A DNA stretch of 40,024 nucleotides from Betaproteobacteria bacterium UBA7395 (GTDB lineage: Bacteria; Pseudomonadota; Gammaproteobacteria; Burkholderiales; Rhodocyclaceae): contig DKNF01000252.1 in NCBI GenBank assembly GCA_002470165.1, positions 1 through 40,024 of the forward strand. Reading direction: 5' to 3'. The notes below the pieces were generated by a model. The model ran no database searches. It worked only from the letters and a program-made list of their open reading frames with translations, and was not told the DNA's origin. Positions 1,221-34,182 of this stretch are shown one piece after another (position 1 is the stretch's first letter; every line of letters starts with the position of its first letter). Position numbers and translations under genes: made by a program.

Positions 1221-1227
1221 CCAAGCC

Positions 1228-3378: not shown

Positions 3379-3403
3379 CGCAAGACCTGACAGGGTCGGT
3401 TAT

Positions 3404-3433
3404 TTGGCTGATTATCCGGTACTTTCCTATGAT
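3404..3433 (+). promoter_or_regulatory. Putative sigma-70 promoter for the FecR/OmpA/HD-GYP cluster
   Basis: TTGGCT (3404-3409) and TATGAT (3428-3433) are separated by 18 bp, in the divergent gap between the cyclase gene and the FecR-domain gene. This is a pattern match only; no transcript data. Confidence 0.45.
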
Positions 3434-3493
3434 ACGCTGAAGCCTGATGGCGAGTCGTTTGAGCATGCACGACATTGTTCGGAGGGTTGCAAA

Positions 3494-3928: not shown

Positions 3929-3931
3929 ACC

Positions 3932-4525: not shown

Positions 4526-4564
4526 CGTTGAGGAATCGACCGCTGCCTTGAACAGCCGAAAGGA

Positions 4565-7549: not shown

Positions 7550-7555
7550 GCGTCT

Positions 7556-9582: not shown

Positions 9583-9743
9583 GCTCGAAGGATAGCGCCT
9601 GACGGAAAATGGAGTACGGCAAATGGTAACAAAGGATATCGACGAGCCACGCCGGGAAACATTCGATTACAACTTGCCGCGCTGTGGGGGTAACCGTGGA
9701 CGGACAATGAATATGCTCCGAAAAGGATAGAATACGCCGCACC

Positions 9744-10031
9744 ATGAAGTCCCGCTCACTGATCCTGATTCTCTCGCTGATGGCGACCGCGCCGGCTCTG
9801 GCCGAGCCACCGCGGCGCGAACTGCCGCCCGAAGAAAAGCGGGAAATGCGCCAGCAGATGCGGGAGCACTGGTATCGCGAAAACATCGGCCCGCAACGCG
9901 CCGATGATGCACGTCCGGCAAACTGGCGAGATTTACCCCCCGATGAACGCCGCCGCTTGCGCGAGGAAATGCGCCAGCAGAATGACCGCGATGATCGCCG
10001 GGACAAGCGCGGCTCGCGCAAGGGCGACTAA
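9744..10031 (+). CDS. Small exported protein rich in Arg/Glu/Asp (unknown function)
   Basis: This 95-residue protein has a clear Sec signal peptide, MKSRSLILILSLMATAPALA, followed by a very charged mature region containing two related segments, LPPEEKREMRQQMREHW and LPPDERRRLREEMRQQN. The duplicated 'LPP-(E/D)-R--R-EMRQQ' unit suggests a small helical periplasmic protein, loosely like the heat-shock/metal-resistance repressor class of short periplasmic helical proteins, but I do not recognise a family. A TAGAAT -10-like element at 9727-9732 precedes it. It lies divergent from ompR-envZ, so it could be an OmpR target; that is inference only. Confidence 0.72.
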   Translation: MKSRSLILILSLMATAPALAEPPRRELPPEEKREMRQQMREHWYRENIGPQRADDARPANWRDLPPDERRRLREEMRQQNDRDDRRDKRGSRKGD

Positions 10032-10069
10032 TACCGCTGCCTTGGGGCTCTCCGGTAGAATGATGCCCC

Positions 10070-10753
10070 ATGCAGATACTTGCCCTAGAAACCTCCACCG
10101 AAACGGGTTCCTGCGCCTTGTGGCAGGACGGCGCGGTGATCGAACGCATTTGTCCGCCCGGGCGCTCGCATTCGGAAACGCTGTTGCCGCTCGTGCGCGA
10201 ATTGCTGGCTGAGAGTGGCATCGCCATCGGCCAGCTCGATGCGATAGCCTTCGATACGGGTCCCGGTGCCTTTACCGGCTTGCGCGTGGCCTGCGGTGCC
10301 GCCCAAGGGCTGGCTGTCGCCGCCGACCTGCCGCTGCTGCCGGTGGTCAGTCTGGAAGCCATGGCCGCCGCGACCGGGGCAGAGCAGGTGCTTGCCTTGC
10401 TCGACGCCCGCATGGGCGAGGTTTACAGCGCCAGCTATCGGCGCCGGGGCGACGTCATGGTTCTGCAAGGCGGTATCCGGGTCACGGCACCGGACAATGT
10501 CGATCTGCCATCCGCCGACTGGCTAGCCTGCGGCAATGCCCTGACGGCCTATCCGGCACTGGCCGAACGCCTGGGGGCTGCCCTGACATTAATGCCGGCC
10601 ATCCTGCCGGAAGCCTCATGGCTGGCCCGTCTCGGGGCATTGAAATTGGCGGCCGGCGAGGGCATCGATCCGGCGCTGGCGGCACCGCTGTACATCCGTG
10701 ACAAGGTCGCCAAGACGATCAGTGAACGCTTGAGCGAAGGTGGGCGCGCGTGA
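10070..10753 (+). CDS. tsaB: TsaB, tRNA threonylcarbamoyladenosine biosynthesis protein
   Basis: The 227-residue protein begins MQILALETSTETGSCALW and carries the family signature IAFDTGPGAFTGLRVACG at about 60-77, followed by AQGLA. TsaB is the non-catalytic ASKHA-fold partner that dimerises with TsaD and recruits TsaE to make t6A37 on ANN-decoding tRNAs. Length and motif match well. The stop overlaps the rimI start (ATGA-type, 4 bp), and tsaB-rimI adjacency is common in proteobacteria. Confidence 0.94.
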   Translation: MQILALETSTETGSCALWQDGAVIERICPPGRSHSETLLPLVRELLAESGIAIGQLDAIAFDTGPGAFTGLRVACGAAQGLAVAADLPLLPVVSLEAMAAATGAEQVLALLDARMGEVYSASYRRRGDVMVLQGGIRVTAPDNVDLPSADWLACGNALTAYPALAERLGAALTLMPAILPEASWLARLGALKLAAGEGIDPALAAPLYIRDKVAKTISERLSEGGRA

Positions 10754-11217
10754 ATCGTCCGCTTCCGTTGCTGACCGTCGAGTATTTTCCGATGGCCGAG
10801 TCCGATCTCGACGCAGTCGCTACGCTGGAAGCCTCGCTGCAGGCTTTTCCCTGGACCCGGGGTAATTTTGCCGATTCCCTGCATGCCGGCTACAGTGCCT
10901 GGGTAGCGCGTCTGGGCGGCGAACTGATCGGGTTTTCGGTGGTCATGCGCGTGCTCGACGAAGCGCATCTGCTGAACATCGGCGTCGCCGGGAAATATCA
11001 GGGGCAGGGCTACGGCGCCCGTTTGCTGCGCAATGCCATGGACGCCGCCCGCATGGCCGGTACGCACCGAATGTTCCTTGAAGTGAGGCCGAGCAACGCG
11101 CGCGCGGTCGAGCTCTATCGCCATTTTGGCTTCCGGCAACTGGGCGTTCGTCGGGAATACTATCCGGCGGCCATCGGTCGCGAGGATGCGCTGGTTTTCG
11201 AAAAGGAGCTGGCATGA
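10750..11217 (+). CDS. rimI: RimI, ribosomal protein S18 alanine N-acetyltransferase (GNAT)
   Basis: The 155-residue product is a GNAT acetyltransferase. The acetyl-CoA-binding motif A is LLNIGVAGKYQGQGYGARLL (about 75-94), with the Q/R-x-x-G-x-G/A phosphate loop, followed by LEVRPSNARAVELYRHFGF, which is highly typical of RimI. It acetylates the N terminus of S18 in E. coli; substrates may be wider in other bacteria. It overlaps both tsaB upstream and the uracil-DNA glycosylase gene downstream by 4 bp, forming a tight three-gene operon. Confidence 0.92.
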   Translation: MNRPLPLLTVEYFPMAESDLDAVATLEASLQAFPWTRGNFADSLHAGYSAWVARLGGELIGFSVVMRVLDEAHLLNIGVAGKYQGQGYGARLLRNAMDAARMAGTHRMFLEVRPSNARAVELYRHFGFRQLGVRREYYPAAIGREDALVFEKELA

Positions 11218-11945
11218 GCCTGAGCCGGGAACAGATGCTGGTCGAAATGGGCATCTCGCCCCTGTGGGTGTTGCGGGACGCGCCGCCGGCATCGCCGCCC
11301 GAGCCGATACCGGTGGTCGCGGCCGACGCACCGGCCGTGGAGCTAGTCCCGGAGCAGGCATCGCCATCAACCGTCGCCACCGATACGATGGACTGGCCGA
11401 CGCTGGAGGCGGCGATCTCCGAATGCCGCAACTGTGGCCTTTGCCAGCAGCGCAAGCAGGCGGTTACCGGCGTGGGCGACCGCAATCCCGACTGGCTGTT
11501 CATCGGCGAGGGGCCGGGAGCGGAAGAGGACATGCGTGGCGAGCCCTTCGTCGGGCAGGCCGGCAAGCTGCTCGACGCCATGCTGGCGGCGCTCGATCTG
11601 GCCCGCGGCGACAAGGTTTATATCGCCAATGCCGTGAAGTGCCGGCCACCCAACAACCGCACGCCGGAAGCCGCCGAGATGGCGGCCTGCCGCCCCTGGC
11701 TGGTCCGCCAGATCGAGTTGCTCAAACCACGTGTGATCGTGCTGCTCGGCAAGGCTGCCGTACATTCGGTACTGGGCGATGACCGGGCGCTCGGCGCCAT
11801 GCGCGGCCAGTCTTTCGAGTACAAGGGCATCCCTGTGGCGGTGACTTACCACCCGGCTTACCTGTTGCGCAACCTGCCGGACAAGGCCAAGGCCTGGGAA
11901 GATCTACTGTTTGCCCGACGGCTGCTGAAGCGGGTAAATCAATAA
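11214..11945 (+). CDS. Family 4 (Fe-S) uracil-DNA glycosylase
   Basis: The 243-residue enzyme has a variable Pro/Ala-rich N terminus (about 1-60) and then a family 4 UDG domain. Cys71, Cys74, Cys143 and Cys159 have the spacing expected for the [4Fe-4S] ligands. Motif GEGPGAEED (about 98-106) forms the uracil-recognition/catalytic loop and HPAYLLRN near residue 213 is the second active-site motif. It removes uracil from DNA by base excision. The N-terminal extension resembles the SPO1 DNA polymerase-related family annotation seen for these proteins. It is coupled to rimI. Confidence 0.92.
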   Translation: MSLSREQMLVEMGISPLWVLRDAPPASPPEPIPVVAADAPAVELVPEQASPSTVATDTMDWPTLEAAISECRNCGLCQQRKQAVTGVGDRNPDWLFIGEGPGAEEDMRGEPFVGQAGKLLDAMLAALDLARGDKVYIANAVKCRPPNNRTPEAAEMAACRPWLVRQIELLKPRVIVLLGKAAVHSVLGDDRALGAMRGQSFEYKGIPVAVTYHPAYLLRNLPDKAKAWEDLLFARRLLKRVNQ

Positions 11946-12039
11946 AATTAACAGCCCCTAGGGTAATACCCGGTTCCCGCGGCATGCCTTTGTTTTTAAG
12001 CTATGACGAACAACACAAAGAAGAAGAAGGTGTTCGTCC

Positions 12040-12441
12040 ATGTCGAATCCCCTCGACACAAACAACGGCGGGCCAATTTGCAATCTCGATTACCTGCTGG
12101 TGAATCTTGGTCGTAATCGGGCGGCCGCCAACCGGCTGGTTCAGCTATTCCTCGAAAATCATCCCCACTTGCTTGCCCGGCTCGAACATGCGGCAAAGGA
12201 GAATGATATTGCGGCGATGCAGGATGTCGTGCACGACATCCGCGGAAGCTGCGTCCTGTTTTCGGCGCACCGTGCCGTTGCGCTGGCGCGGGAACTCGAA
12301 TACGTCCTGCATTGCCACCGCCAGGATGGAGCGGGTATCAACTGGCTGGCGCGCAGTGCCGCACTGCGCAATGCGCTAGTCGCAGTCCATGACGAACTGA
12401 GGCGTTACCAGGAAGAGAATCCGGCTTCCGATCTCAGTTGA
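12040..12441 (+). CDS. Stand-alone Hpt (histidine phosphotransfer) protein
   Basis: The 133-residue all-helical protein has the Hpt four-helix pattern: a RNRAAANRLVQLFLEN helix, then AMQDVVHDIRGSC, where the His is the likely phospho-acceptor (canonical H-x-(L/I)-K/R-G), then a VALARELEYVL helix. No kinase domain is attached. Such proteins shuttle phosphate between hybrid kinases and response regulators. Its 3' end overlaps by 8 bp with a convergent NarL-type response regulator, a plausible partner by position only; no hybrid kinase is in the window. Confidence 0.75.
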   Translation: MSNPLDTNNGGPICNLDYLLVNLGRNRAAANRLVQLFLENHPHLLARLEHAAKENDIAAMQDVVHDIRGSCVLFSAHRAVALARELEYVLHCHRQDGAGINWLARSAALRNALVAVHDELRRYQEENPASDLS

Positions 12442-13057
12442 GCAGGCCGTTCTGAACGGCGAAACGTGTCAGACCGGTGACGTCGTGGACGCCAATCCGC
12501 TGCATCAAACGCGCCCGATGAAACTCGACGGTTTTCGGGCTGATGCCGAGATCGCGGGCAATTTCCTTGGTGGTGTGCCCGTTGGCAACCAGGCGCAGGA
12601 TCTCGGTTTGCCGTGCGGTGAGTCCATCGCAAGGCGAAGCCGAATCGGTGCCGTGTTGTTCGCTGATTTTCGATGACAGGAAGGGGCGTTGTTCCATGAC
12701 GGCCAGCAAGGCCTGCTGCAACTCGTCGAGGATGAAATCCTTGAGCAGATACCCGTTCGCGCCGGCATCGAAGGCCTGGTCGACAACGTCACGCCGGTCG
12801 ATGCTCGACAGGATCAGGATGCGCACTTGCGGATTGCTGCGACGGACCAGTCGCGCCACCTCAATGCCCGACAGGCCTGGCATGGCAATATCCAGCAGGA
12901 CGACATCGGGCGAGCTACGTTCGATCTCCGCGATGGCCTGCCGGCCGTCAGCGCATTCGGCAAGCACTTGATAGCCGGGGAGCGATTCGAGCAAAGCCCG
13001 AATGCCTGCGCGGACCAGCAAGTGGTCGTCTACTAAAACTATTCGCACGGTATTCAT
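12434..13057 (-). CDS. NarL/FixJ-type response regulator
   Basis: I start this at the ATG at 13057 (207 residues); a TTG 21 bp upstream would add seven residues unlike the family. The receiver begins TVRIVLVDDHLLVRAGI, with phospho-acceptor Asp56 in VLLDIAMPG and a conserved YLLKDF Lys. A LuxR/GerE helix-turn-helix follows from about 145: LTARQTEILRLVANGHTTKEIA, then GISPKTVEFHRARLM. It should bind DNA as a phosphorylated dimer. It is convergent with the Hpt gene; targets and kinase are unknown. Confidence 0.88.
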   Translation of the reverse strand: MNTVRIVLVDDHLLVRAGIRALLESLPGYQVLAECADGRQAIAEIERSSPDVVLLDIAMPGLSGIEVARLVRRSNPQVRILILSSIDRRDVVDQAFDAGANGYLLKDFILDELQQALLAVMEQRPFLSSKISEQHGTDSASPCDGLTARQTEILRLVANGHTTKEIARDLGISPKTVEFHRARLMQRIGVHDVTGLTRFAVQNGLLN

Positions 13058-13108
13058 CGTGCGGACAGAATATGCCAAAACCGCCGCCTTGTGCCACCCA
13101 CTGGGGTT

Positions 13109-13729
13109 TTACCTTGGGGCGCCTAGCACCGGCATGGTGATACCCAAACGCAGGGAGAGCAGGCGCAACAGCAAGACGATACCCATCGCGGCCCAGGCCG
13201 CGTTGACCGCAGGCAGTCCGAGTTCCTGCATGGCGATCAGTGACAGTGCGCCAATCCAGGCTGCCGTTGCATACAGCTCTCCCTTGAGGAAGATGCTGGG
13301 GACGTCATTGCACAGGATGTCGCGGAGCACGCCGCCGACCACGCCGGTGATCACGCCCATCAAGCTGGCGGCCAGCCAGGGCACATGCCACTGCAGCGCG
13401 ATCTGGGTGCCGATGATGGTAAACAGGGCCAAGCCGATGGCGTCGGGTATCTGGAACAACTGCTGCGGCACGTTGATGCGGCGGACCACGAAAAAAGCCC
13501 CCATGCCGGTCGCCAGGGCAGTCATCAGGTAAGCCTGGTCGGCCACCCAGAAAACGTTGCGATCGAGCAGCAGGTCGCGGACGGTGCCGCCGCCAAGCGC
13601 CGTGGCCACGGCGACCAATAGCGCCCCGATGAGATCCATCTGCTTGCGGCTGGCGTCGAGCACACCGGTCAGTGCGTTGACTGCCACCGCTGACATGCCG
13701 ACCCAGTAGAGCAGGGCGTCCATGCTCAT
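13109..13729 (-). CDS. TRIC-type cation channel family protein (UPF0126/YadS-like)
   Basis: The 206-residue protein has about seven hydrophobic helices in two repeated halves. Each half carries the family marker: ALGGGTVRDLLL (about 45-56) and VVGGVLRDILCND (about 131-143), matching the duplicated GGG-RD motif of UPF0126, the bacterial relatives of trimeric intracellular cation channels. Inner membrane; expected to conduct monovalent cations, physiological role unclear. Its start lies 1 bp upstream of the smpB stop, so it is probably cotranscribed downstream of smpB. Confidence 0.85.
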   Translation of the reverse strand: MSMDALLYWVGMSAVAVNALTGVLDASRKQMDLIGALLVAVATALGGGTVRDLLLDRNVFWVADQAYLMTALATGMGAFFVVRRINVPQQLFQIPDAIGLALFTIIGTQIALQWHVPWLAASLMGVITGVVGGVLRDILCNDVPSIFLKGELYATAAWIGALSLIAMQELGLPAVNAAWAAMGIVLLLRLLSLRLGITMPVLGAPR

Positions 13730-13730
13730 G

Positions 13731-14180
13731 TCAGCGCAGGTTTTCCTTCATGGCCCGCTGAGCTTCGCGCTTGCCTTCCTTTTCCTGCTGGTCGGCACGT
13801 TTGTCGTATTGCTTCTTGCCCTTGGCCAGACCGATTTCGAGCTTGATCCGGCCGCGGACGAAATGCAGGTCGAGCGGGACCAGCGCGTAGCCGGCACGCT
13901 CGACCTTGCCGATCAACTTGCCGATCTCGCGCGCATGCAGCAGCAATTTCCGGGTGCGTACCGGGTCGTGGTGGTTATGGGTCGATGCCGTCGACAGCGG
14001 GCTGATGTGCATGCCGATCAGGAACAGCTCGCCATGGCGGATGATGACGTAGGATTCCTTGATGTTCATGCGGCCAGCACGAATCGCCTTGACTTCCCAA
14101 CCTTCAAGGACCATGCCTGCCTCATACTTCTCTTCGACGAAGTAATCGTGAAAGGCTTTTTTGTTGACCGTAATGCTCAT
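13731..14180 (-). CDS. smpB: SmpB, tmRNA-binding protein
   Basis: The 149-residue product matches SmpB in length and sequence: [35 protein letters not shown], then RTRKLLLH and the basic tail ending [12 protein letters not shown] plus a charged helix that reaches the decoding centre. SmpB binds tmRNA and delivers it to stalled ribosomes for trans-translation. The tmRNA gene itself was not found in the window. It is divergent from ratA, an arrangement widespread in proteobacteria (smpB/ratA). Confidence 0.96.
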
Positions 14181-14240
14181 GCCGCCACGCGATCCATTAA
14201 AATCCGCGATTCTACAGGATTACAGGAACGCTGCCGCCGC

Positions 14241-14687
14241 ATGGCCCTGGTCGAAAAAACAGTCTTGATCGAACATTCTGCGCAGCAGATGTTCGAGTTG
14301 GTGGATCGTTGCGAGGACTATCCGGCTTTCCTGCCGTGGTGCAGTCGCACCGAGCTCAAGTTGCGCGACGACACGAAGACCGTGGCGACGCTGCACATCA
14401 ACTACCACGCGGTGAAGTCGAGTTTCACCACCGAGAACGACAAGGAATTCCCGACCCTGATGAAAATCCGTCTGGTCGATGGCCCGTTCCGGCATCTCGA
14501 GGGGGCCTGGCATTTCCGCCCCTTGGCTGAAAACGCCTGCAAGATCGAGTTCAGGCTGCATTACGAGTTTTCCAGCAAATTGTTCGAGAAGATCATCGGC
14601 CCGGTGTTCAGCCACATCGCCAACACCTTCGTCGATGCCTTCGTGCGCCGTGCCGCGCAGGTCTATGGAGCCAACCATGGCGGATGA
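14241..14687 (+). CDS. ratA: RatA-like START/Coq10 domain protein
   Basis: The 148-residue protein starts at the ATG of MALVEKTVLIEHSAQQMFEL; the longer frame upstream runs through smpB antisense. It shows the Coq10/RatA signature DRCEDYPAFLPWCSRTEL and the C-terminal GPVFSHIANTFVDAFVRRA helix. E. coli RatA was described as blocking 70S assembly, while the fold is a lipid/ubiquinone-binding START domain; which role holds here is open. It overlaps rnfH by 11 bp and is divergent from smpB. Confidence 0.9.
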   Translation: MALVEKTVLIEHSAQQMFELVDRCEDYPAFLPWCSRTELKLRDDTKTVATLHINYHAVKSSFTTENDKEFPTLMKIRLVDGPFRHLEGAWHFRPLAENACKIEFRLHYEFSSKLFEKIIGPVFSHIANTFVDAFVRRAAQVYGANHGG

Positions 14688-14997
14688 AATGATCAACATC
14701 GAAGTCTGTTACCCGCTGCCCGACAAGCAGGAAGTTGTCCGTTTGCGTCTGCCGGCCGGCAGTGTGCTGAAGCAGGCGGTTGAAGCTTCGGGGCTGGTCG
14801 AGAAATACCCGGAAATCGATCTGGCGAAGAACAAGTTCGGCATCTGGAACAAGCTGTCGAAACTCGATGCCGCGTTGCGCGACTTCGACCGGGTGGAAAT
14901 CTATCGGCCGCTGATCGCCGACCCCAAGGAGGTACGCAAGCAACGGGCGGCCGAAGGCAAGGTCATGAAGAAGGGCGCCGGCGATGCCGACGCCTGA
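14677..14997 (+). CDS. rnfH: RnfH-family ubiquitin-like protein
   Basis: The 106-residue protein begins MADEMINIEVCYPLPDKQ and has the family markers VVRLRLPAGSVLKQAVEASG, VGIWN-like FGIWNKLSKLDAALRDFDRVEIYRPL, and DPKEVRKQRA near the C terminus, followed by a Lys/Asp-rich tail. RnfH has a beta-grasp fold; the name comes from linkage to rnf genes, and no biochemical role is firmly set. It is coupled to ratA as in many proteobacteria and converges on the DUF4124 gene 3 bp away. Confidence 0.9.
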   Translation: MADEMINIEVCYPLPDKQEVVRLRLPAGSVLKQAVEASGLVEKYPEIDLAKNKFGIWNKLSKLDAALRDFDRVEIYRPLIADPKEVRKQRAAEGKVMKKGAGDADA

Positions 14998-15000
14998 GGC

Positions 15001-15498
15001 TTACTTGCAGGCATCCTGCATGATGCGGCGGGTGCGGTCCATTTCCTGCCGGCGTTGAGCCGGGCTGATGACCGAGACGCTGCCATCCTTGGCGGCCTGA
15101 CTGACCGGCGTATCCGATTGCAGCATGCGGTAATTGTTGCGCGCCCGCTCGCAGGTTTCGCGTTTTTCCTTGAGCGCGGCGGCTTCCTTTTCGGCTTTCT
15201 CGGCTTTTTCCCGCGCTTCCTGCTGACGCTTGCGGAACTCGACTTCCTGTTCTGCCGCCGATTGTGGGGCGGTCTGGGCCGGCGGTTCTGCGTTTGCTTT
15301 TTCGGGCTCAGTCGTGCCGGTCGCCACATTCGGCTGCCGTACGCCAAGCGAGCGAGCGCCGCGCGCACTTGCCGGTGGCGGCGTGTCGGAAATGACTGTC
15401 TTGCCGCTGGCGTCCTTCCACTGGTAAGTCTGGGCCTGCGCGGTCATCAGGCTGACACTCGAGGCCAGTGCCAGTGCAACAATCAGCGATTTCTTCAT
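15001..15498 (-). CDS. Exported DUF4124-domain protein with coiled coil
   Basis: Start chosen at 15498 (165 residues), where [22 protein letters not shown] forms a good signal peptide; the longer frame extends into the guaB promoter. A DUF4124 motif follows immediately: [20 protein letters not shown]. Residues about 75-115 are a charged, Ala/Glu/Lys-rich coiled coil. DUF4124 proteins are envelope proteins of unknown role, abundant in betaproteobacteria. A second, similar protein is at 38017-38532. It is divergent from guaB. Confidence 0.82.
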
Positions 15499-15531
15499 GG
15501 TCCGGTCATCGGGCTTTGCAAAGGATTTCTG

Positions 15532-15537
15532 TATAAT
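15532..15537 (+). promoter_or_regulatory. Consensus -10 box upstream of guaB
   Basis: A perfect TATAAT lies 28 bp before the guaB ATG. No convincing -35 hexamer sits at the matching distance (only weak sequence around 15509-15515), so the promoter may use an activator or an extended element. Confidence 0.5.
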
Positions 15538-15565
15538 ACGATTTTGTGACCTTGGATCAAAGGCC

Positions 15566-17029
15566 ATGCGACTTCTGCAAAAAGCCCTGACTTTCGACGA
15601 CGTCCTGCTCGTCCCCGCCCATTCTCAAGTTCTTCCCCGCGATGTCAGCCTCGCCACGCGCCTGACCCGCGACATCACCCTGAACCTGCCGCTGCTGTCG
15701 GCCGCCATGGATACCGTGACCGAAGGCCGGTTGGCTATTGCCATGGCCCAGGAAGGCGGTATCGGCATCATTCACAAGAACCTCTCGTCCCGTGCCCAGG
15801 CCGCCGAAGTGGCCAAGGTCAAGCGTTTCGAGTCGGGCATCCTGCGCGATCCGATCACCGTGACGCCGAACATGACGGTGCGCGATGTCCTTGAAATCAC
15901 CCGCCAGCACAAGATTTCCGGCCTGCCGGTGATCGACAAGAACGGCAAGGTGGTCGGCATCGTCACCAACCGCGATCTGCGTTTCGAAACCAACCTCGAC
16001 CAACCCGTGAAGTCGATCATGACGCCGCGCAAGCGCCTGGTTACGGTCAACGAGGAAGCCAGTGTCGAGGATGCCAAGGAACTGATCCGTCTGCACCGCC
16101 TGGAGCGCGTGCTGGTGGTCAATGCCAATTTTGAACTGCGGGGCCTGATTACCGTCAAGGACATCCTCAAGTCGACTGAACATCCGCTCGCCAACAAGGA
16201 CGCCAGCGGTCGTTTGCGTGCCGGCGCCGCGGTCGGCGTCGGTGCCGGTACGGAAGAGCGCGTCGAATTGCTGGCTGAGGCCGGCGTCGATGTGGTGGTC
16301 GTCGATACCGCCCACGGTCATTCGCAGGGCGTGCTTGATCGCGTTCGCTGGGTCAAGAAGAACTACCCGCAGATTCAGGTCATCGGCGGCAACATTGCCA
16401 CCGCCGACGCCGCGCGCGCACTGGTTGATGCCGGCGCCGACGGGGTCAAGGTCGGCATCGGCCCCGGTTCGATCTGCACCACGCGCATCGTCGCCGGTGT
16501 CGGCGTGCCGCAGATCACCGCCATCCAGAACGTTTCCGAAGCGCTCAAGGGCACCGGCGTGCCGATGATCGCCGACGGCGGCATCCGTTACTCCGGCGAC
16601 ATCGCCAAGGCGATCGCCGCTGGTGCCGACACGGTCATGCTCGGCGGCCTGTTCGCCGGTACCGAGGAAGCCCCGGGCGAGGTCGAGCTGTTCCAGGGCC
16701 GCTCCTACAAGTCTTACCGCGGCATGGGGTCGCTGGGTGCGATGCAGGCCGGCTCCTCGGATCGCTACTTCCAGGAGAACACCGGTAACGTCGACAAGTT
16801 CGTGCCGGAAGGTATCGAAGGCCGCGTCCCGTACAAGGGCTCGGTACTCGCCGTGATCCACCAGTTGATGGGCGGCCTGCGCTCGTCGATGGGCTACCTG
16901 GGCACGCCGAGCATCGCCGACATGCACGAGAAAGCCTGTTTCGTCGAGATCACCTCGGCCGGCATCCGCGAGTCGCACGTGCACGACGTGCAGATCACCA
17001 AGGAAGCGCCGAACTATCACCTCGACTGA
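15566..17029 (+). CDS. guaB: GuaB, IMP dehydrogenase
   Basis: The 487-residue enzyme has the TIM barrel split by a Bateman module of two CBS domains (about 93-205: [17 protein letters not shown] and [15 protein letters not shown]). The catalytic loop [18 protein letters not shown] places the active-site Cys near residue 304, and [11 protein letters not shown] with RYFQ marks the IMP phosphate and flap regions. It oxidises IMP to XMP with NAD in de novo GMP synthesis. The start is the ATG of [18 protein letters not shown]. guaA follows 60 bp downstream, separated by a hairpin. Confidence 0.98.
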
Positions 17030-17048
17030 TCGTTCCAGTGTCCAGAAG

Positions 17049-17072
17049 GGCGGCTAATTCAGCCGCCTTTTT
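17049..17072 (+). terminator. Rho-independent terminator/attenuator between guaB and guaA
   Basis: GGCGGCT (17049-17055), a 5-nt loop and AGCCGCC (17061-17067) form a perfect 7-bp stem followed by TTTTTC. It lies inside the guaBA operon, so it may lower guaA relative to guaB or mark a separate guaA promoter. Confidence 0.75.
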
Positions 17073-17089
17073 CATTCAAGGTTGTGAAC

Positions 17090-18724
17090 ATGTCCCACCA
17101 GAAAATCCTCATCCTCGATTTCGGTTCCCAGGTCACCCAGCTGATCGCCCGTCGCGTGCGCGAAGCCAAGGTCTTCTGCGAGATCCATCCCTACGACGTC
17201 TCGGATGACTTCATCCGCAACTACGGCGCCAAGGGCATCATCCTGTCGGGCGGACCGAATTCGGTCACCGAGGGCGATACGCCGCGCGCGCCGAAGATCG
17301 TTTTCGAACTGGGCATTCCGGTGCTCGGCATCTGCTACGGCATGCAGACCATGGCGCAACAACTGGGCGGCAAGGTGATGACTGCCGAGGCGGCCGGCAA
17401 GGCGCGCGAATTCGGCTATTCCGAAGTGCGCGCACATGGCCATACGGCGTTGTTGAAGGACATCGCCGACTTCACCACGGCCGAAGGTCACGGCATGCTC
17501 AAGGTCTGGATGAGCCACGGTGATTCCGTGATGGAACTGCCGCCCGGCTTCAAGACCATGGCGTCCACGCCCTCCTGTCCGATCGCCGGCATGGCCGACG
17601 AAAGCCGCAAGTTCTACGCCGTGCAGTTCCACCCGGAAGTTACGCACACCGTGCAGGGCCGTGCCATCCTCGAAAGTTTCGTGCACGGCATCTGCGGCTG
17701 CGGCACCGACTGGGTGATGGGCGACTACATCGCCGAAGCCGTTGCCGCGATCCGCGCCCAGGTGGGCAGCGATGATGTCATCCTCGGCTTGTCCGGCGGC
17801 GTCGATTCCAGCGTTGCCGCGGCGCTGATTCACCGCGCCATCGGTGACCAGCTGACCTGCGTTTTCGTCGATCACGGCCTCTTGCGCCTCAACGAAGGCG
17901 ACATGGTCATGGACATGTTCGCGCGCAACCTCGGCGTCAAGGTCATCCGCGTCGATGCGGTCGACGACTTCATGGGCAAGCTGGCCGGCGTCTCCGACCC
18001 GGAACAGAAGCGCAAGATCATCGGCAAGGAATTCGTCGAGGTCTTCCAGGCCGAATCGAAGAAGCTGGTGTCGGCAAAATGGCTGGCCCAGGGCACGATC
18101 TATCCGGACGTGATCGAATCGGCCGGCAAGGGCAAGAAGGGCGCGCACACCATCAAGAGTCACCACAACGTCGGCGGCCTGCCGGAAGACATGCACCTGA
18201 AGCTGCTCGAACCGCTGCGCGAGCTGTTCAAGGACGAGGTCCGCGAACTCGGCGTCGCTCTCGGCCTGCCGCGCGAAATGGTCTATCGCCACCCGTTCCC
18301 CGGCCCCGGCCTGGGCGTGCGCATCCTCGGCGAAGTCACGCAGAAGGCCGCGCAACTGCTGCAGCGGGCCGACGCCATTTTCATCGATGAGCTGCGCGCG
18401 ACCGTGGCTACCGAACGCGATGTCGCGGCCGGCGCCTGCACCGAAGCTGATGTCGGCAAGACCTGGTACGACCTGACCAGCCAGGCCTTCGCCGTCTTCC
18501 TGCCGGTCAAGAGCGTCGGCGTGATGGGCGACGGCCGCACCTACGAGAACGTCGTCGCGCTGCGTGCCGTCGTTACCAGCGACTTCATGACCGCGCACTG
18601 GGCGCACCTGCCGTATGAACTCCTCGGCCGGGTGTCCAACCGGATCATCAACGAAGTGCGCGGGCTGAACCGGGTGGTGTACGACGTCTCCGGCAAACCG
18701 CCGGCGACGATCGAGTGGGAATGA
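17090..18724 (+). CDS. guaA: GuaA, GMP synthase (glutamine-hydrolysing)
   Basis: From the ATG at 17090 the product is 544 residues (a GTG 6 bp earlier would add two). The N-terminal class I glutamine amidotransferase domain has [15 protein letters not shown] (nucleophile Cys about residue 84) and the His/Glu pair in QFHPEVTHT. The ATP-pyrophosphatase domain begins with the PP-loop [15 protein letters not shown] (about 233-247), and the C-terminal dimerisation domain ends with [24 protein letters not shown]. It aminates XMP to GMP. A strong bidirectional terminator follows. Confidence 0.98.
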
Positions 18725-26549: not shown

Positions 26550-27205
26550 AAATGCTGAAGAAAACGCTGGTTGCCGTACTGTTCGCCACCACCATGCCGC
26601 TGCTTGTCCATGGCAGCACCTACGACGATCTGATCCAGGGGGCCAGACTGGGCGACACCAACGCCATTGGTCGACTGCTGGCCCGTGGCGCTTCGGCAGA
26701 CACGACGGACATCGAGGGCAATACGCTATTGATGCTGGCTGCCCGCGACGGCCATGCGCAATTGGCCGAATTACTGGTCAATCACCGAGCCAAACTCAAC
26801 GCCCGTAACGCCGCCGGCGACACGGCCCTTGGCTTGGCGGCATTGCGTGGGCACCAACGCATTGTCGAGATACTGGTCGCGGCAGGAGCATCCCAGGAAG
26901 TTCCGGGCTGGCCGCCGCTCGTTTATGCGGCTTTTGGCGGCCATTCGGAGATCGTCGCCTTCCTTTTGCGCCACGGCGCCAACGTCGATGCAGTCAGCGA
27001 AAGCGGCATGTCTGCGCTGATGGCGGCAGCACGGGGAGGTTTCCGGCCCATCGTCAACGCCTTGCTTGCAGCGAAGGCGAACACGGAACTGCGAACCGAC
27101 CGCGGTGAGTCTGCGCTGGATATCGCGCTTCGCTTCAACAATACGGATATCGCCGAACAATTACGCGCCGTGTCAGCCCAGCAAGCAACGAAGCCGGCTC
27201 AGTAG
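26546..27205 (+). CDS. Exported ankyrin-repeat protein
   Basis: The 219-residue protein has a signal peptide, MKMLKKTLVAVLFATTMPLLVHG, followed by five or so ankyrin repeats: GNTLLMLAARDGHAQLAELLV, GDTALGLAALRGHQRIVEILV, WPPLVYAAFGGHSEIVAFLL, GMSALMAAARGGFRPIVNALL, and GESALDIALRFNNTDIAEQL. It probably acts by protein binding in the periplasm. The start overlaps the tatD stop (ATGA), making it the last gene of the mltG operon. In the prophage-free chromosome its stop would lie about 70 bp from dif. Confidence 0.9.
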   Translation: MKMLKKTLVAVLFATTMPLLVHGSTYDDLIQGARLGDTNAIGRLLARGASADTTDIEGNTLLMLAARDGHAQLAELLVNHRAKLNARNAAGDTALGLAALRGHQRIVEILVAAGASQEVPGWPPLVYAAFGGHSEIVAFLLRHGANVDAVSESGMSALMAAARGGFRPIVNALLAAKANTELRTDRGESALDIALRFNNTDIAEQLRAVSAQQATKPAQ

Positions 27206-27276
27206 TTAGAAATACTAAGGTTCTGATGATGGGAGAAGGCGGCAGGCGGAAAAACACCTTTTTCCCCACTTCAACA

Positions 27277-27306
27277 ACTTCGTATAATTGGCCCCCTATG
27301 CAAAAC
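27277..27306 (+). other. attL: XerC half-site of dif joined to phage sequence
   Basis: The XerC arm ACTTCGTATAA (27277-27287) is identical to that of the right-hand dif. After TT the sequence diverges to a degenerate phage half (CTATGCAAAAC at 27296-27306 keeps 7 of 11 positions of the XerD arm). Integration therefore left a hybrid, probably weak, site on the left. Confidence 0.8.
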
Positions 27307-27348
27307 GCATCGTTGCGCGATGTGAAAACCCACAGATTTTGGGGATAA

Positions 27349-27376
27349 GGCCGGGGATAACCCGGCCTTTTGCTTT
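27349..27376 (+). terminator. Rho-independent terminator of the phage regulator transcript
   Basis: GGCCGGG (27349-27355), loop GATAA, CCCGGCC (27361-27367), then TTTTGCTTT. In the circular phage this lies 24 bp after the stop codon (27323-27325) of the regulator whose body is at 33700, so it is correctly placed to end that message; in the lysogen it can end the upstream ankyrin operon. Confidence 0.75.
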
Positions 27377-27920: not shown

Positions 27921-29093
27921 TCAGCCGCTGACGCTGGCTGAAGTCGGCGTAACAGATTGTGTTGGCGTGTCGCAGATAACCCAGCGAGCGGAGCCATTCC
28001 ACGCGATACGGACGGCGCAAGGCGTAGCCTGATCGATGGTGTAGCCTAGCTCAATGAGTTCGTCAGTCTGCAACGTGCTGACGATCTGACCGTTTTGCGA
28101 GACGGCGAACAGGTGGCGAAGGGTTGCGCCCTTCACCGAGCCGACTACATGAAAACCCCGACCGGCGAACGGTTCCGGTGGCCCCTCGCTGGTGGTATGA
28201 ACGGCAACGGTGGTTTCGTCTGGTTGCGGCTGCGCCGTGTCAGAGACGACAACGCCATTGACGGTTTCAACGACGCGCACCGGCTTGGGTTTGTCGTCGT
28301 CTTTCGCCATACCGTTTTTGAGCGGGTTGAGAGACACGCCAGTGCCGAACAGGATGGCGAAGAACAGGACGAAGGAAACAGCCGCGCCGATGAACGGCCA
28401 GCGCATCCAGATCGGGACGATATCCTGTGCAGCCAGTTCAGAGCCGCCGCCCCTTGTATGCGACTTATAGAGGCCGAAATACTTGGAGTGGTATTCCCGG
28501 ATCGACGTATTGACGACCTCACCGCGAACACCGTCCTGCACCTTGCGGATGTATTTGTCCTCGCGGCCAAAGGCAGTGGCCTTCTTGACGCGGTAGCAGA
28601 CTTGAACCAGATCGATGATCGACTTGCTGACCTTGCCGTAACTCTGCGTAATCAAGAGGACGTCGGCGGACTCGTGCCGGTGTAGGGAATACCATTCCTC
28701 AACGTCGCGCCGAGTGGCCCCACGAGGCAAACACAGGTGGCATTCATCGATGACATACAGCGGTCCGCTGCCGTTGTCTGGATGCCGCCACGGATCGCCG
28801 TAGTCTTCGGGATTGGCGAAAGGCCGGTCGAGAAATTCCGGGCCAACGTTGCGCATGAAGCGCATGAACGTTGCAGGATCGCGGGTGCCGGGTATCGGTT
28901 CCGGGGGCTTGCCGAGGGTCTTGGTCCGAATCTCGATCAGCGATGTGTCGAAGCCCAGCTGGTCGAAGCGGTCCAACTCAAGCGGCAGATTAGTGATTAC
29001 CTTGCGGCCAAGGTTTAGCGCCTTGATGACGTGGTAAACGGTTGCCTCGTAGGACTTGCCGCCGCCGGGCTGGCCGATCAACAGGTTAATCAT
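27921..29093 (-). CDS. zot: Zot-like phage assembly ATPase (pI)
   Basis: Start at 29093 (390 residues), where ATG overlaps the stop of the acidic ORF; a longer frame adds 13 Thr/Ser-rich residues with no role. The N-terminal cytoplasmic ATPase has Walker A GQPGGGKS (7-14) and Walker B YVIDE (113-117) followed by CHLCLPRG. A transmembrane helix spans about 233-254, with a periplasmic C-terminal domain after it, rich in Thr/Pro. This is the pI/Zot inner-membrane motor that drives virion extrusion. No outer-membrane pIV secretin is in the phage, so a host secretin is presumably used. Confidence 0.94.
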   Translation of the reverse strand: MINLLIGQPGGGKSYEATVYHVIKALNLGRKVITNLPLELDRFDQLGFDTSLIEIRTKTLGKPPEPIPGTRDPATFMRFMRNVGPEFLDRPFANPEDYGDPWRHPDNGSGPLYVIDECHLCLPRGATRRDVEEWYSLHRHESADVLLITQSYGKVSKSIIDLVQVCYRVKKATAFGREDKYIRKVQDGVRGEVVNTSIREYHSKYFGLYKSHTRGGGSELAAQDIVPIWMRWPFIGAAVSFVLFFAILFGTGVSLNPLKNGMAKDDDKPKPVRVVETVNGVVVSDTAQPQPDETTVAVHTTSEGPPEPFAGRGFHVVGSVKGATLRHLFAVSQNGQIVSTLQTDELIELGYTIDQATPCAVRIAWNGSARWVICDTPTQSVTPTSASVSG

Positions 29094-29265
29094 GATCGCA
29101 GTCGACTTCGCCGTCGTCGTCGTCGAATTCAACGTCGTCAGGATCGGCGAGCATGTAATCGATCATGTCATACGCTTCCTCGCAGGTATAGCCGTCGTCC
29201 ATGAGTTCCTGAACAAGCTGTTCCGGGTCTTCTTGGGCCATAGCGAGATAGTCAGGACGTGGCAT
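29086..29265 (-). CDS. Small acidic protein upstream of zot (unknown)
   Basis: A 59-codon ORF begins with an ATG that overlaps the stop of the pVI-like gene (TAATG) and ends in ATGATTAA, overlapping the Zot start by 8 bp. The tight coupling on both sides supports real translation. The product, starting MPRPDYLAMAQEDPEQLVQ, is strikingly acidic, about 24 of 59 residues Asp or Glu, with a C-terminal run of FDDDDGEVDCDHD. No membrane segment. I do not recognise a family; position suggests a role in assembly or in modulating Zot. Confidence 0.62.
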   Translation of the reverse strand: MPRPDYLAMAQEDPEQLVQELMDDGYTCEEAYDMIDYMLADPDDVEFDDDDGEVDCDHD

Positions 29266-29600
29266 TAGCTACCGAGCCTCACAAATGGGATCAGTTGAAG
29301 AATCAGCCGGATGCCAATGGCAGCGGCGACGATGGCAAAACAGTCGGCGAGGCCAATCAAGCCGAGGACGTTGATAACCTCACCGGGGAGCGCGCCCCAT
29401 GCACCAATTGAGGCATCAAATGCAGCGACGTTGATCGCATTCAGGAGGCCAACAACGAAGCCTAGAATCTGGTCGAGGACGTAGGCGACCAGATCAACGG
29501 CCATGTCCCAGACGGCAGTAAATACAGCCTTCACCAGTCCAAAAATCCACTCAGCAAAGCCGATGATGGCTTCCCAGATCGCCTCTATGACGTCGAACAT
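29265..29600 (-). CDS. Hydrophobic minor coat protein, pVI-like (DUF2523 type)
   Basis: The 111-residue protein has about three hydrophobic segments (about 10-30, 38-62, 78-108) and aromatic-rich WEAIIGFAEWIFGLVKAVFTAVW at its N terminus. Its size, hydrophobicity and place between the adsorption protein and Zot match the gVI-type capsid end protein annotated as DUF2523 in inoviruses of Neisseria and relatives. It should sit in the inner membrane before assembly and then cap the pIII end of the virion. It lies 1 bp downstream of the adsorption gene. Confidence 0.78.
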   Translation of the reverse strand: MFDVIEAIWEAIIGFAEWIFGLVKAVFTAVWDMAVDLVAYVLDQILGFVVGLLNAINVAAFDASIGAWGALPGEVINVLGLIGLADCFAIVAAAIGIRLILQLIPFVRLGS

Positions 29601-31656: not shown

Positions 31657-32847
31657 TTAAGCCGCCCTCAGTTCCGGCAGGCCGTACCATTCCGGCGCGG
31701 CCAAGGGTTTGAGGGAGTGCTGGGGCAGGGCATCCAACATGCGCTGCAATGCTTCCTCAGCATTCGGGCGACCATCGAGACGGCGCGGTTCGGATACGTC
31801 AAGACCGTATTCAAGCAGGGCTTTGCGGTGGCGCTTCCATGTCCGTTCAGACAGGAGGCAGCGAAGGTCACGACCGTCGATCCACGACAGTGCGGACATG
31901 CGCAGTTGCCGGGGCATGTCGGCGACAAGGCGCACAGAGTTGTCAGAGCGAGCGAGCAACAGGGGGGCCGTTTCGGCGTTGTATAGGGCAATCAGTTTTG
32001 CCATGGTGATATCTCCCGTGTAACGGAGGTTTTTCCCGCGTAGGTAAAGGGCGCCGCATTTCACTTCGACGCGAACTAGGCCAAGGTCCATGGCCATCTG
32101 ATATTCCTGCGATTGCTTGACAGCGGCCTTGGCGTCGTCGCCCTTGGCATGTGCCAGCATTTCAGGCCCCTTCCGGTAGCAGACAACGCCACGGTGCAGG
32201 CGCTGCCCCTTCTTGTTCGGCATGCCGAAGGACACGGACTCGTTGCCAAACGCGGACTTGCTGACGCGTGCCAGTCGCCGGCCTTGCATGTCGCGCATGA
32301 TTTCGACGGCCAGTGCATCGCTGCCGGCGTACCAGTTGCGCGTCACATGCAGTTCATTGACGACAGCGCCGGTCCATTTCCACGGGCTGACGCCCTTGCG
32401 GCGGTCGTCTTCGCTGATGGTTTCCCGCAGGACGTTTTCGCCATGGCTGAAGGCCGGCAGGCCGTGGGCGCGGCATTCGACGTTGGCGAGGTGTAGCGTG
32501 TCGTTCCACGCGTAGTTCCAGAGGTTGTCCGGGCGGTCGAGCCGGCCAACGTTGCCGGATATACGGACGTTGCGACCGTCCGAATGAAGAAGCACGCTAG
32601 TGGCGTGCGAGCCTTCGCGCCGACCGGGCAGGGTCTTGAATCCGCACTTGTCGCCGGTATTGGACGAAAGCAGGTAATAGACTTTCCCGTCCTCGGTGAC
32701 GGCTTCGACTTCCTTGCCGGTAGCACGCACTCCGCCGATGAATTCCGGGTGACCTGCATACACGGTGCCGGCCTGACGCATGGCGTGGGTGTAGGCGTGG
32801 TCTTGGCGAAGATCGAGCCAATCGATAAAGATTTCGTCAGCGTTCAT
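31657..32847 (-). CDS. Phage replication initiation protein (gene II/X family)
   Basis: The 396-residue protein begins MNADEIFIDWLDLRQDH and shows the pattern of the inovirus gene II-type initiator: FIDWLDL N terminus, NVRISGNVGRLDRPDNLWNY, a central ELHVTRNWYAG segment, RLHRGVVCYRKG, and VRVEVKCGALYLRGKNLRYTGDIT. These nick the plus-strand origin via tyrosine and start rolling-circle synthesis; I cannot assign the catalytic Tyr with certainty (Tyr173 region or the CYRKG Tyr are candidates). Its start overlaps the upstream 71-residue ORF (ATGA). Confidence 0.87.
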   Translation of the reverse strand: MNADEIFIDWLDLRQDHAYTHAMRQAGTVYAGHPEFIGGVRATGKEVEAVTEDGKVYYLLSSNTGDKCGFKTLPGRREGSHATSVLLHSDGRNVRISGNVGRLDRPDNLWNYAWNDTLHLANVECRAHGLPAFSHGENVLRETISEDDRRKGVSPWKWTGAVVNELHVTRNWYAGSDALAVEIMRDMQGRRLARVSKSAFGNESVSFGMPNKKGQRLHRGVVCYRKGPEMLAHAKGDDAKAAVKQSQEYQMAMDLGLVRVEVKCGALYLRGKNLRYTGDITMAKLIALYNAETAPLLLARSDNSVRLVADMPRQLRMSALSWIDGRDLRCLLSERTWKRHRKALLEYGLDVSEPRRLDGRPNAEEALQRMLDALPQHSLKPLAAPEWYGLPELRAA

Positions 32848-33249: not shown

Positions 33250-33555
33250 TCAGTCCTCGATGGCCGACAGGGCAACGTCACAGCCGTAACGGTCCTCGCC
33301 GGTGGCCTTGTCCTTGTACTTGCGGCGGTAGCCCTTGAGCGCCACGCGTTGCGTCACATCGTCGCCGGGCTTGCCGAGAAGACGGGCGGACACAATGCGG
33401 ATGGTCTGGGGCTGGCTCCATTGGTCGGGAGCCGGGAGCGTCACATCGGTATAGACGGCGTTTGCCGTGCGATTGACTTCGAGAATGCGACCGCGCACGA
33501 CGGCTTGATTCGCGGCCAGCGGCGGTTGTTTGGTGACTTCGGCGACGTTGCTCAT
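33250..33555 (-). CDS. Phage ssDNA-binding protein (gene V-like)
   Basis: Start at 33555 (101 residues) follows a GAGGAAA ribosome-binding site; the longer frame extends through the operators. The protein is basic with an OB-fold-like strand pattern: VVRGRILEVNRTANAVYTDVTLPAP, QTIRIVSARLLGKPGDDVTQRVALKGYRRKY. Size and place first in the leftward operon match inovirus ssDNA-binding proteins that coat the single-stranded genome before assembly and repress replication-protein translation. Assignment rests on context and character, not on a diagnostic motif. Confidence 0.72.
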   Translation of the reverse strand: MSNVAEVTKQPPLAANQAVVRGRILEVNRTANAVYTDVTLPAPDQWSQPQTIRIVSARLLGKPGDDVTQRVALKGYRRKYKDKATGEDRYGCDVALSAIED

Positions 33556-33581: not shown

Positions 33582-33650
33582 CACTCCAAAATCGGAGTGT
33601 GCGTAGTGGACTCCAAATTTGGACTGTAGTCAAGCACCAGTTTTGGAACT
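33582..33650. promoter_or_regulatory. Three operator-like palindromes between the regulator and the phage operon
   Basis: Spaced about 27 bp apart: CACTCC-n6-GGAGTG (33582-33599), a perfect 12-bp palindrome TCCAAATTTGGA (33612-33623) within ACTCC..GGACT, and AGTTTTGGAACT (33639-33650). The recurring half-site is ACTCCAAA/TTTGGA. On the minus strand a -35-like TTGACT (33628-33633) lies between the second and third, so the regulator at 33700 could block leftward transcription. Confidence 0.6.
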
Positions 33651-33699: not shown

Positions 33700-34182
33700 A
33701 TGACCCCTAATGAATACCTGGACGCCGCCAAGGCAAAAATGGGCGTGGAGAGCGATTACGAGCTAGCCCGGCGACTGGAGTGCCCGAACGGACATGTGAC
33801 CGAAATGCGCAACGGGAAACGAGGGGTGCCGCTGGCGATTGCTTTCAAGCTTGCGATCACGCTGGAGCTAGACCCGGCAACAGTCGTTGCCGATCTTGAG
33901 AGCCAGCGGGAAAAGAACATGAAGCGCCGGGAGTTCTGGACGGGTTTTATTCGGCGTGCCGCAGTAGTCGCGGCTTTGGCGTGCACGCTGGCGTTGAACT
34001 TTTCCGCTACCTACGAGGGCGCAGCCGCCACGATTGGTGGCGTCGCGGCGGCTAGTGCCGCCCTTTGGCTGGTTCTACGACTTCGTATAATTTGTATTAT
34101 GTTAAATTGTGTTTGCGCAAGGGATATCGATTTGGCCGCTGAACGTGTGGGATGGATACGATCAGCGGCGATCAATGCTTAG
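33700..34182 (+). CDS. Phage HTH regulator with C-terminal membrane helix (DUF3693-like), tail altered by integration
   Basis: The 160-residue protein has an N-terminal Cro/XRE-like HTH (about 17-60: SDYELARRLECPNGHVTEMRNGKRGVP), a basic linker (EKNMKRREFWTGFIRRA) and a hydrophobic region (about 86-128), so it is probably a membrane-tethered repressor-like protein of the type encoded divergent to inovirus early genes. Codons from about 132 on are read out of host dif and flanking DNA. In the circular phage the frame would instead run into the left end, ending IIGPLCKTHRCAM at 27323-27325 (142 residues), just before a terminator. Confidence 0.78.
   Translation: MTPNEYLDAAKAKMGVESDYELARRLECPNGHVTEMRNGKRGVPLAIAFKLAITLELDPATVVADLESQREKNMKRREFWTGFIRRAAVVAALACTLALNFSATYEGAAATIGGVAAASAALWLVLRLRIICIMLNCVCARDIDLAAERVGWIRSAAINA
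34080..34107 (+). other. dif site (attR) for XerC/XerD
   Basis: XerC arm ACTTCGTATAA (34080-34090), 6-bp centre TTTGTA, XerD arm TTATGTTAAAT (34097-34107). The XerD arm is identical to that of E. coli dif, and total length is the canonical 28 bp. It is the chromosome dimer-resolution site rebuilt at the right end of the prophage, and implies that the window spans the replication terminus. Confidence 0.9.

What the first reader, a model, noticed from the sequence alone, without database searches (positions are those of the whole stretch)
33700..34182. Attachment site lies inside the regulator gene, so integration swaps the regulator's C-terminal tail
In the lysogen the frame crosses dif and reads about 29 host-encoded residues, ending at 34182. 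Joining the att repeats as in a circular phage gives instead 11 phage-encoded residues (GPLCKTHRCAM) and a stop at 27323-27325, followed 24 bp later by a perfect terminator (27349-27371). That the phage-form gene has its own stop and terminator strongly suggests this is its native end. Integration could thus act as a molecular switch, giving different proteins in phage and lysogen.
Basis: partly seen in the sequence, partly recalled or inferred. Interest (0 to 1): 0.8.

Follow-up and report, generated by a model that had tools for sequence, protein, structure and literature searches.

The report
Phage attachment site inside regulator gene
A small filamentous phage sitting in a bacterial chromosome has its insertion point inside the end of its own control gene, so the control protein ends differently in the free phage and in the inserted phage; this arrangement is known from a few other phages, and whether the change matters here is not shown.

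Summary
A 6,803-bp filamentous prophage sits at dif (XerC arm at 27277 and 34080) and its HTH regulator (33700-34182) reads across dif. Joining the att sites gives 142 aa ending GPLCKTHRCAM, stop 27323-27325, then a 9-bp-stem terminator. A metagenomic homologue (P0007) naturally ends in exactly these 11 residues.

A switch is not shown for this phage. The lysogen tail is host spacer DNA: a near-identical host with an empty dif would give a different, shorter tail. Across the family the frame over the XerC arm has changed many times; in 78 of 119 classed homologues (mostly judged from protein ends) the arm itself appears to supply the stop, so integration would change nothing.

The arrangement is in print (phiRSS0 ORF13, XacF1 ORF12), and mycobacteriophage BPs uses it as a proven switch. 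In a sister, phiRSS0-like class the case is better: the phage-side end carries a terminator in 12 of 15 loci (lysogen side 2 of 15), and one basic tail family shows signs of protein-level conservation, so integration there probably removes a selected tail.

Verdict: new member of a known kind; switch plausible, unproven.

The parts
33700..34182 (+). Regulator gene, lysogen form, 160 aa: HTH (about residues 3-70), two hydrophobic segments (about 87-103 and 110-126), tail
   Evidence: PHROG 638 transcriptional regulator 1.7e-19; AlphaFold of homologue P0007; hydropathy
34080..34107 (+). attR = intact host dif: XerC arm 34080-34090, central 34091-34096, XerD arm 34097-34107
   Evidence: the 26-base pattern (one free base) occurs in 6 of 76 genomes of the genus, the window's own included
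34093..34182 (+). Lysogen-specific 29 codons and stop (dif-coded, then host spacer)
   Evidence: empty-site relative differs
27277..27304 (+). attL: XerC arm 27277-27287 followed by phage central region and degenerate XerD half
27290..27325 (+). Phage-specific tail GPLCKTHRCAM and stop, read by the regulator only in the circular phage
   Evidence: identical natural tail in P0007
27347..27376 (+). Intrinsic terminator of the phage-form gene, cut off from it in the lysogen
33582..33623 (.). Two palindromes (33582-33599, 33612-33623) between the divergent regulator and ssb genes: likely operators
   Evidence: function inferred
33250..33552 (-). Single-strand DNA-binding protein
   Evidence: PHROG 8473
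31657..32847 (-). Replication protein
   Evidence: PHROG 702, PF05155
31091..31225 (-). Major coat protein
   Evidence: PHROG 3354
29265..29600 (-). Minor coat protein
   Evidence: PHROG 974
27921..29093 (-). Zot-like (pI) assembly protein
   Evidence: PHROG 197, PF05707
34179..34631 (-). Host DUF1178 gene, convergent with the regulator; its end overlaps the lysogen-form stop
   Evidence: PF06676

Best explanation
A filamentous phage integrated at dif by host XerCD (exchange beside the XerC arm; mechanism inferred from the att sequences). attP overlaps the last codons of its HTH regulator with hydrophobic segments, which is transcribed away from the rest of the phage and is probably its immunity or lysogeny repressor (inferred). 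Integration swaps 11 phage-coded residues, the native stop and the terminator for dif-coded residues and host spacer (shown from sequence). DNA-binding and hydrophobic parts stay intact, so the lysogen should keep a working regulator (inferred). In this lineage the new tail is most likely a tolerated by-product of packing attP into the end of a gene, not a selected switch.
For: att repeats, frame, stop and terminator. Natural phage-type and lysogen-type pairs in sublineages: P0007/P0004 v P0001/P0002; P0006 v P0012; P0005 v P0016; P0008 v P0003. Lysogen tails follow the host: the empty-site relative L099 (DUF1178 100%, Ank 96% identical) would give IICIMLNYVCAR* in the same phase; P0003 and P0032, different phages, share (Q/K)EFIRVR. 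Frame classes 78 stop-in-arm, 27 frame 2, 14 frame 3 of 119 classed; 13 changes on the full tree (starred branches force 5, 3 and 6), 18 on a tree of the first 100 residues (4, 5 and 6). P0020, P0023 and P0024, in the window's 14-row group of the full tree (support 93, not starred), have no tail after the arm.
Against: The 11-residue tail is identical in P0007 (11 of 11) and 9 of 11 in P0004, although the hydrophobic stretch just before it differs; this may be protein selection or only attP DNA constraint, and no phage-form DNA of these homologues was obtained. The phage form has its own terminator. A sister class shows signs of selected tails. BPs proves that such swaps can be switches. The trees have few columns and many unresolved forks. 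Most stop-in-arm calls rest on protein ends, not DNA, and a few frame labels were set by eye.
Confidence: 0.6

Rival explanations
1. A true integration-dependent switch as in mycobacteriophage BPs: the phage-form tail makes the regulator unstable or less active, and integration removes it, giving a stable lysogenic repressor.
For: attP in the regulator 3' end and a native phage-side stop and terminator; BPs precedent; Yamada's Hypothesis 1 for phiRSS0; XacF1 prophage unstable when the 5' part of ORF12 is deleted; tail identical in P0007.
Against: Here the lysogen form is longer (160 v 142 aa), the phage tail ends CAM, not an ssrA-like AA, and the lysogen tail is host spacer. Homologues with the stop in the arm cannot switch in this way.
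Confidence: 0.25
2. The consequence is at RNA level: integration removes the terminator, so the lysogen transcript runs on, antisense into DUF1178, and regulator mRNA level or stability changes while the protein tail is irrelevant.
For: Terminator after the phage-form stop, none found within the searched 110 nt after the lysogen stop; in type I loci 0 of 10 attR ends have one, 4 of 8 phage-type ends do.
Against: Terminators further off or Rho termination are possible; no RNA data.
Confidence: 0.12
3. The prophage is a decayed relic and the crossing frame is an accident of decay.
For: The assembly is a fragmented draft (84% complete); G006 carries only a remnant at the same site.
Against: Ssb, rep, coat, minor coat and Zot genes match their families over most of their length; att sites are clean; P0007 has the same phage tail.
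Confidence: 0.03

Closest known systems
Ralstonia filamentous phage phiRSS0, ORF13 (Yamada 2013, PMC3816273; passages read)
   Same: Inovirus at dif by XerCD; reverse-oriented HTH regulator; attP at its 3' end; integration changes the C-terminus; a before/after functional difference was proposed.
   Different: By my reading of the printed att core phiRSS0 shares the XerD side of dif, and the lysogen form is shorter (156 to 130 aa); here the XerC side is shared and the lysogen form is longer (142 to 160). Homology of ORF13 was not tested: record not held under the two accessions tried.
Xanthomonas filamentous phage XacF1, ORF12, and Cf (PMC4076744, PMC5666396; passages read)
   Same: attP inside the coding region of the regulator; ORF split on integration; by my reading the printed attP core includes most of the XerC arm.
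   Different: Host and sequence differ; a 5' deletion of ORF12 destabilised the prophage there; no such test here. An exact match to the core was not found in Cf1c's regulator gene.
Mycobacteriophage BPs integration-dependent immunity (PMC4557955; passages read)
   Same: attP within the repressor gene; two repressor forms; native 3' end on the phage side.
   Different: Has its own integrase; phage form longer, with an ssrA-like degradation tag; the switch was shown by experiment.

Membership tests
dif-integrating inovirus with attP inside its regulator gene (phiRSS0/XacF1 kind) | Filamentous phage gene set without integrase, flanked by dif-derived repeats | tested here: met
   ssb, rep, coat, minor coat, Zot; no integrase among the 9 phage ORFs searched, smaller ORFs not searched; XerC arm at both ends
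dif-integrating inovirus with attP inside its regulator gene (phiRSS0/XacF1 kind) | Reverse-oriented HTH regulator whose 3' end contains attP | tested here: met
dif-integrating inovirus with attP inside its regulator gene (phiRSS0/XacF1 kind) | Integration changes the regulator C-terminus | tested here: met
   from sequence; not seen in protein
dif-integrating inovirus with attP inside its regulator gene (phiRSS0/XacF1 kind) | Regulator homologous to phiRSS0 ORF13 | not tested
   record not held under the two accessions tried
BPs-type integration-dependent immunity | attP within the repressor reading frame | tested here: met
   that it is a repressor is inferred
BPs-type integration-dependent immunity | Phage form is longer and ends in an ssrA-like tag | tested here: not met
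   142 v 160 aa; ends HRCAM
BPs-type integration-dependent immunity | Phage form unstable, lysogen form active | not testable with these tools
   needs protein half-life and repression assays
BPs-type integration-dependent immunity | Phage-encoded integrase next to the repressor | tested here: not met
   none among the 9 phage ORFs searched; neighbours of the regulator are ssb and, across att, host DUF1178

The most novel reading that the evidence does not exclude
Filamentous phages of the window host's order run integration-dependent regulator switches through the host's own dif site. In the phiRSS0-like class the free phage makes a regulator with a selected, basic C-terminal tail that ends at its native stop and terminator; on integration the host dif supplies a stop codon (8 of 15 loci) or leads into unrelated residues and the tail is lost, so the host site itself reports to the regulator that it is integrated. 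Other lineages made the gene integration-proof by placing the stop codon inside the XerC arm. The window's phage is a read-through member with a short version of this tail.
Probability: 0.3. Interest if true: 0.75.

Novelty: new member of a known kind. Interest (0 to 1): 0.5.

Why it matters
How a filamentous phage with no integrase of its own links integration to repression is, to my knowledge, open (recalled). If the tail swap matters, the host's chromosome-dimer-resolution site doubles as part of a phage regulatory gene. The homologues give natural phage-form, lysogen-form and apparently integration-proof versions of one regulator family, so Yamada's 2013 hypothesis becomes directly testable in harmless hosts.

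Tried and rejected
Considered and rejected: chance frame (natural P0007 and P0004 tails); assembly artefact (clean att sites; same host context in the empty relative).

Led nowhere: phiRSS0 record not held under two accessions; its printed att core in viral contigs hit four contigs with the same flanks and no regulator-like ORF across it, judged by eye; attP pattern of the window in viral contigs, no match; solved-structure sequence search gave only three weak HTH hits (E 0.07-0.09); NCBIfam only sub-cutoff HigA; Pfam none for the regulator; the host's tmRNA, sought with one family (RF01850) to compare its tag with the tail, not found.

Against the sister-class claim: over all 24 tail codons the true frame is little better than the +1 frame (dN/dS 0.24/0.54 v 0.27/0.46) and variable sites by codon position are not significant (15, 7, 13; p 0.23). 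Only codons outside the DNA pattern used to collect most of the sequences are telling, clearest in the first 10 (amino-acid identity 0.69 v 0.36 and 0.28; synonymous 124 v nonsynonymous 112 differing codon pairs, against 34/208 and 13/219 off frame; dN/dS computable for 20 of 36 pairs). Five of those nine tails (L191, L203, L205, L207, L209) have no in-frame regulator of their own on the contig. Tail charge is higher in frame (mean 4.8 v 1.9 and 0.9; Wilcoxon p 0.004 and 0.0007), but one reverse frame also averages 3.6. Tails of 18 or more codons: 13 of 13 in frame, 14 of 26 off frame (Fisher p 0.002). The loci are related, so these p-values are too small. L141 is in these 13 but was left out of the 15 loci (poor attL); also left out there: L137 (attL gave the lysogen tail), L041 (type I; no terminator) and L244 (found, tail NRRRLWRWLQAALHTVQAQPHPAPG, not scored for a terminator). 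In the frame count P0116 and P0062 were reassigned by eye and P0048 was left out.

Full report
What is there. The window (contig of a draft genome, 84% complete) holds a 6,803-bp filamentous prophage between a host TatD-ankyrin gene pair and a host DUF1178 gene. Its ssb, replication, coat, minor coat and Zot-like genes run leftwards; one regulator runs rightwards and ends at the right att site. The host dif, ACTTCGTATAA|TTTGTA|TTATGTTAAAT, is intact at 34080-34107. The XerC arm alone recurs at 27277, followed there by phage sequence TTGGCC|CCCTATGCAAA. This is what XerC-side exchange between dif and a phage site with a poor XerD half would leave; that mechanism is inferred from the sequences and from recalled knowledge of VGJphi-like phages. 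A related tandem prophage (L031) shows a natural phage-phage junction of the same build.

The two ends of the protein. In the lysogen the frame reads through dif and ends at 34182 (160 aa). In the joined circle it reads GPLCKTHRCAM and stops at 27323-27325 (142 aa), followed by a perfect 9-bp-stem terminator. The search of 5.8 billion proteins returned 150 relatives, the best 120 listed. P0007 (143 aa, contig of 6,409 bases) ends RIIGPLCKTHRCAM and P0004 (142 aa, contig of 6,174) RIIGTLCKTHHCAM. Others of the same sublineages end RIICIMLN..., the dif-coded lysogen type: 12 lysogen-type and 15 phage-type among the 27 frame-2 proteins (with P0116 moved into this class and P0048 left out). The predicted junction is therefore seen in a relative, though not in this very phage.

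What the regulator is. PHROG 638 transcriptional regulator, E 1.7e-19. AlphaFold of P0007 gives a confident five-helix HTH (residues 3-70), a long helix 74-104 and a low-confidence helix 113-140. Foldseek has no match with E up to 0.001; after one unrelated model, its top rows are mostly XRE/HigA/P22 c2-like HTH proteins, E about 0.01-0.07. Two hydrophobic segments, about 87-103 and 110-126, lie before att; the lysogen tail adds a further hydrophobic stretch, 124-140, overlapping the second. Two palindromes lie between the regulator and ssb. A repressor of the divergent phage genes is the natural guess; no call shows it.

Is the swap a switch in this phage? Four results speak against selection on it. 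(1) The lysogen tail is host spacer: in L099, an empty site with DUF1178 100% and ankyrin protein 96% identical, the same phase ends IICIMLNYVCAR*. (2) Different phages share a tail after dif that looks host-coded: P0003 and P0032, (Q/K)EFIRVR (no DNA seen). (3) Across the family the XerC arm is crossed in all three frames: stop apparently inside the arm (CGCATAA gives ..A*) in 78, frame 2 in 27, frame 3 in 14 of 119 classed proteins; the labels need 13 changes on a tree of all kept columns and 18 on one of the first 100 residues, of which starred branches force 5, 3, 6 and 4, 5, 6 per class. Stop-in-arm was seen in DNA only for some loci. (4) P0020, P0023 and P0024, in the window's 14-row group of the first tree (support 93), stop in the arm and have no tail. 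Against this, the 11 residues are identical in P0007 although the stretch before them has diverged; that may be DNA constraint on attP or protein selection, and I could not obtain the DNA to tell.

A wider pattern, found on the way. In many related prophages the regulator runs into central-XerD sequence of dif instead. Of 92 distinct regulator ends scanned, 5 have no stop on the contig; 29 of the other 87 have a XerD-like arm (up to 2 mismatches) in the last 160 nt before the stop (the window itself among them), against 5 of 1,079 other ORFs of the same loci. For a first 13 loci an upstream dif gave the phage-side reading. Their phage forms carry 18-39 residues after the arm, all of net positive charge. 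In 15 loci (12 of those 13, and L184, L185, L188) the lysogen form stops inside the host arm in 8 (..CIM*..CVM*..VLC*..YYV*); the phage-form stop is followed within 110 nt by an intrinsic terminator in 12, the lysogen-form stop in 2; random positions 45 of 1,500. In type I loci, phage-type ends have one in 4 of 8 (window, L031, L040, L058; not L041, L045, L059, L060) and attR ends in 0 of 10.

Is the sister-class tail a real protein segment? L184, L185 and L188 share RRRIW-RLQ-ALRAIQ-type tails with the same following terminator; L192, a contig with a natural phage-form junction, carries a tail of the same kind although its regulator crosses dif in another frame, with one extra base restoring the frame (spacer 42 against 41). 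A second tail family (RKIF/RRIF) is in frame in three of three loci, with spacers 11, 11 and 13 counted by hand (arithmetic). Four further contigs have spacer 43, but no regulator end was found on them. L191 is out of frame: its regulator stops at the arm and the tail follows in another frame, possibly a junction of two phages. In the first 10 tail codons of 9 sequences, in-frame identity is 0.69 against 0.36 and 0.28, with synonymous changes abundant only in frame; over all 24 codons the signal is weak, and part of the tail was fixed by the search pattern. AlphaFold makes the L192 tail part of a helix 115-145 (pLDDT means 66, 78 and 62 over residues 121-150), from an alignment whose other rows lack the tail. 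So in that class integration probably removes a selected tail. A few phage-type ends resemble degradation tags (L049 ..QIAA, P0136 ..SLAAA, L177 ..GAAAA); most do not.

Known work. Yamada 2013 (passages) reports attP inside phiRSS0 ORF13, a change from 156 to 130 aa on integration, and proposes different functions before and after. Ahmad and co-workers (passages) report attP inside XacF1 ORF12, and an unstable prophage when the 5' part of ORF12 is deleted. Villanueva 2015 (passages) describes BPs, where the phage form is degraded through an ssrA-like tag and the integrated, shorter form represses. I found no paper that generalises this to inoviruses at large; the searches were in an open-licence library, judged mostly from listings, so papers in subscription journals or passages not shown may be missed.

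Judgement. The window's phage is a new member of the phiRSS0/XacF1 kind. It resembles them in layout; that it works like BPs is not shown, and two BPs features are not met (longer, tagged phage form; own integrase). I put a by-product reading at 0.6 and a real switch in this phage at 0.25. The sister class gives the more novel reading and the better test case.

Noticed in passing
L038 (G078:C33) 2957-17708: Two different filamentous prophages stand in tandem at one dif: a type I phage (2957-9669) and a phiRSS0-like phage (9669-17708).
   Followed up: partly
L031 2606-16124: Tandem copies of one prophage in a metagenomic contig; the inner junction at 9365 is a natural attP.
   Followed up: yes
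L045 (G033:C325) 1-9171: Three regulator copies or pieces on one 9-kb contig, suggesting stacked filamentous prophages.
   Followed up: no
L036 (G006:C98) 7868-10682: Prophage remnant at the same dif-DUF1178 site: regulator, ssb and a truncated rep, then a long unrelated ORF; no second att found.
   Followed up: partly
L199/L200 (OR402836, OL791267): Records named (Lentisphaerae) phage WC36-1 match parts of this betaproteobacterial prophage at 73% DNA identity and a sister-class regulator at 62%; the host assignment may deserve a check.
   Followed up: no
window 27205-27376: In the lysogen the phage terminator is stranded downstream of the host ankyrin gene and may now end that operon.
   Followed up: no
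L177 6731-7207: A phage-type regulator end ..TDGAAAA resembles a degradation tag.
   Followed up: no
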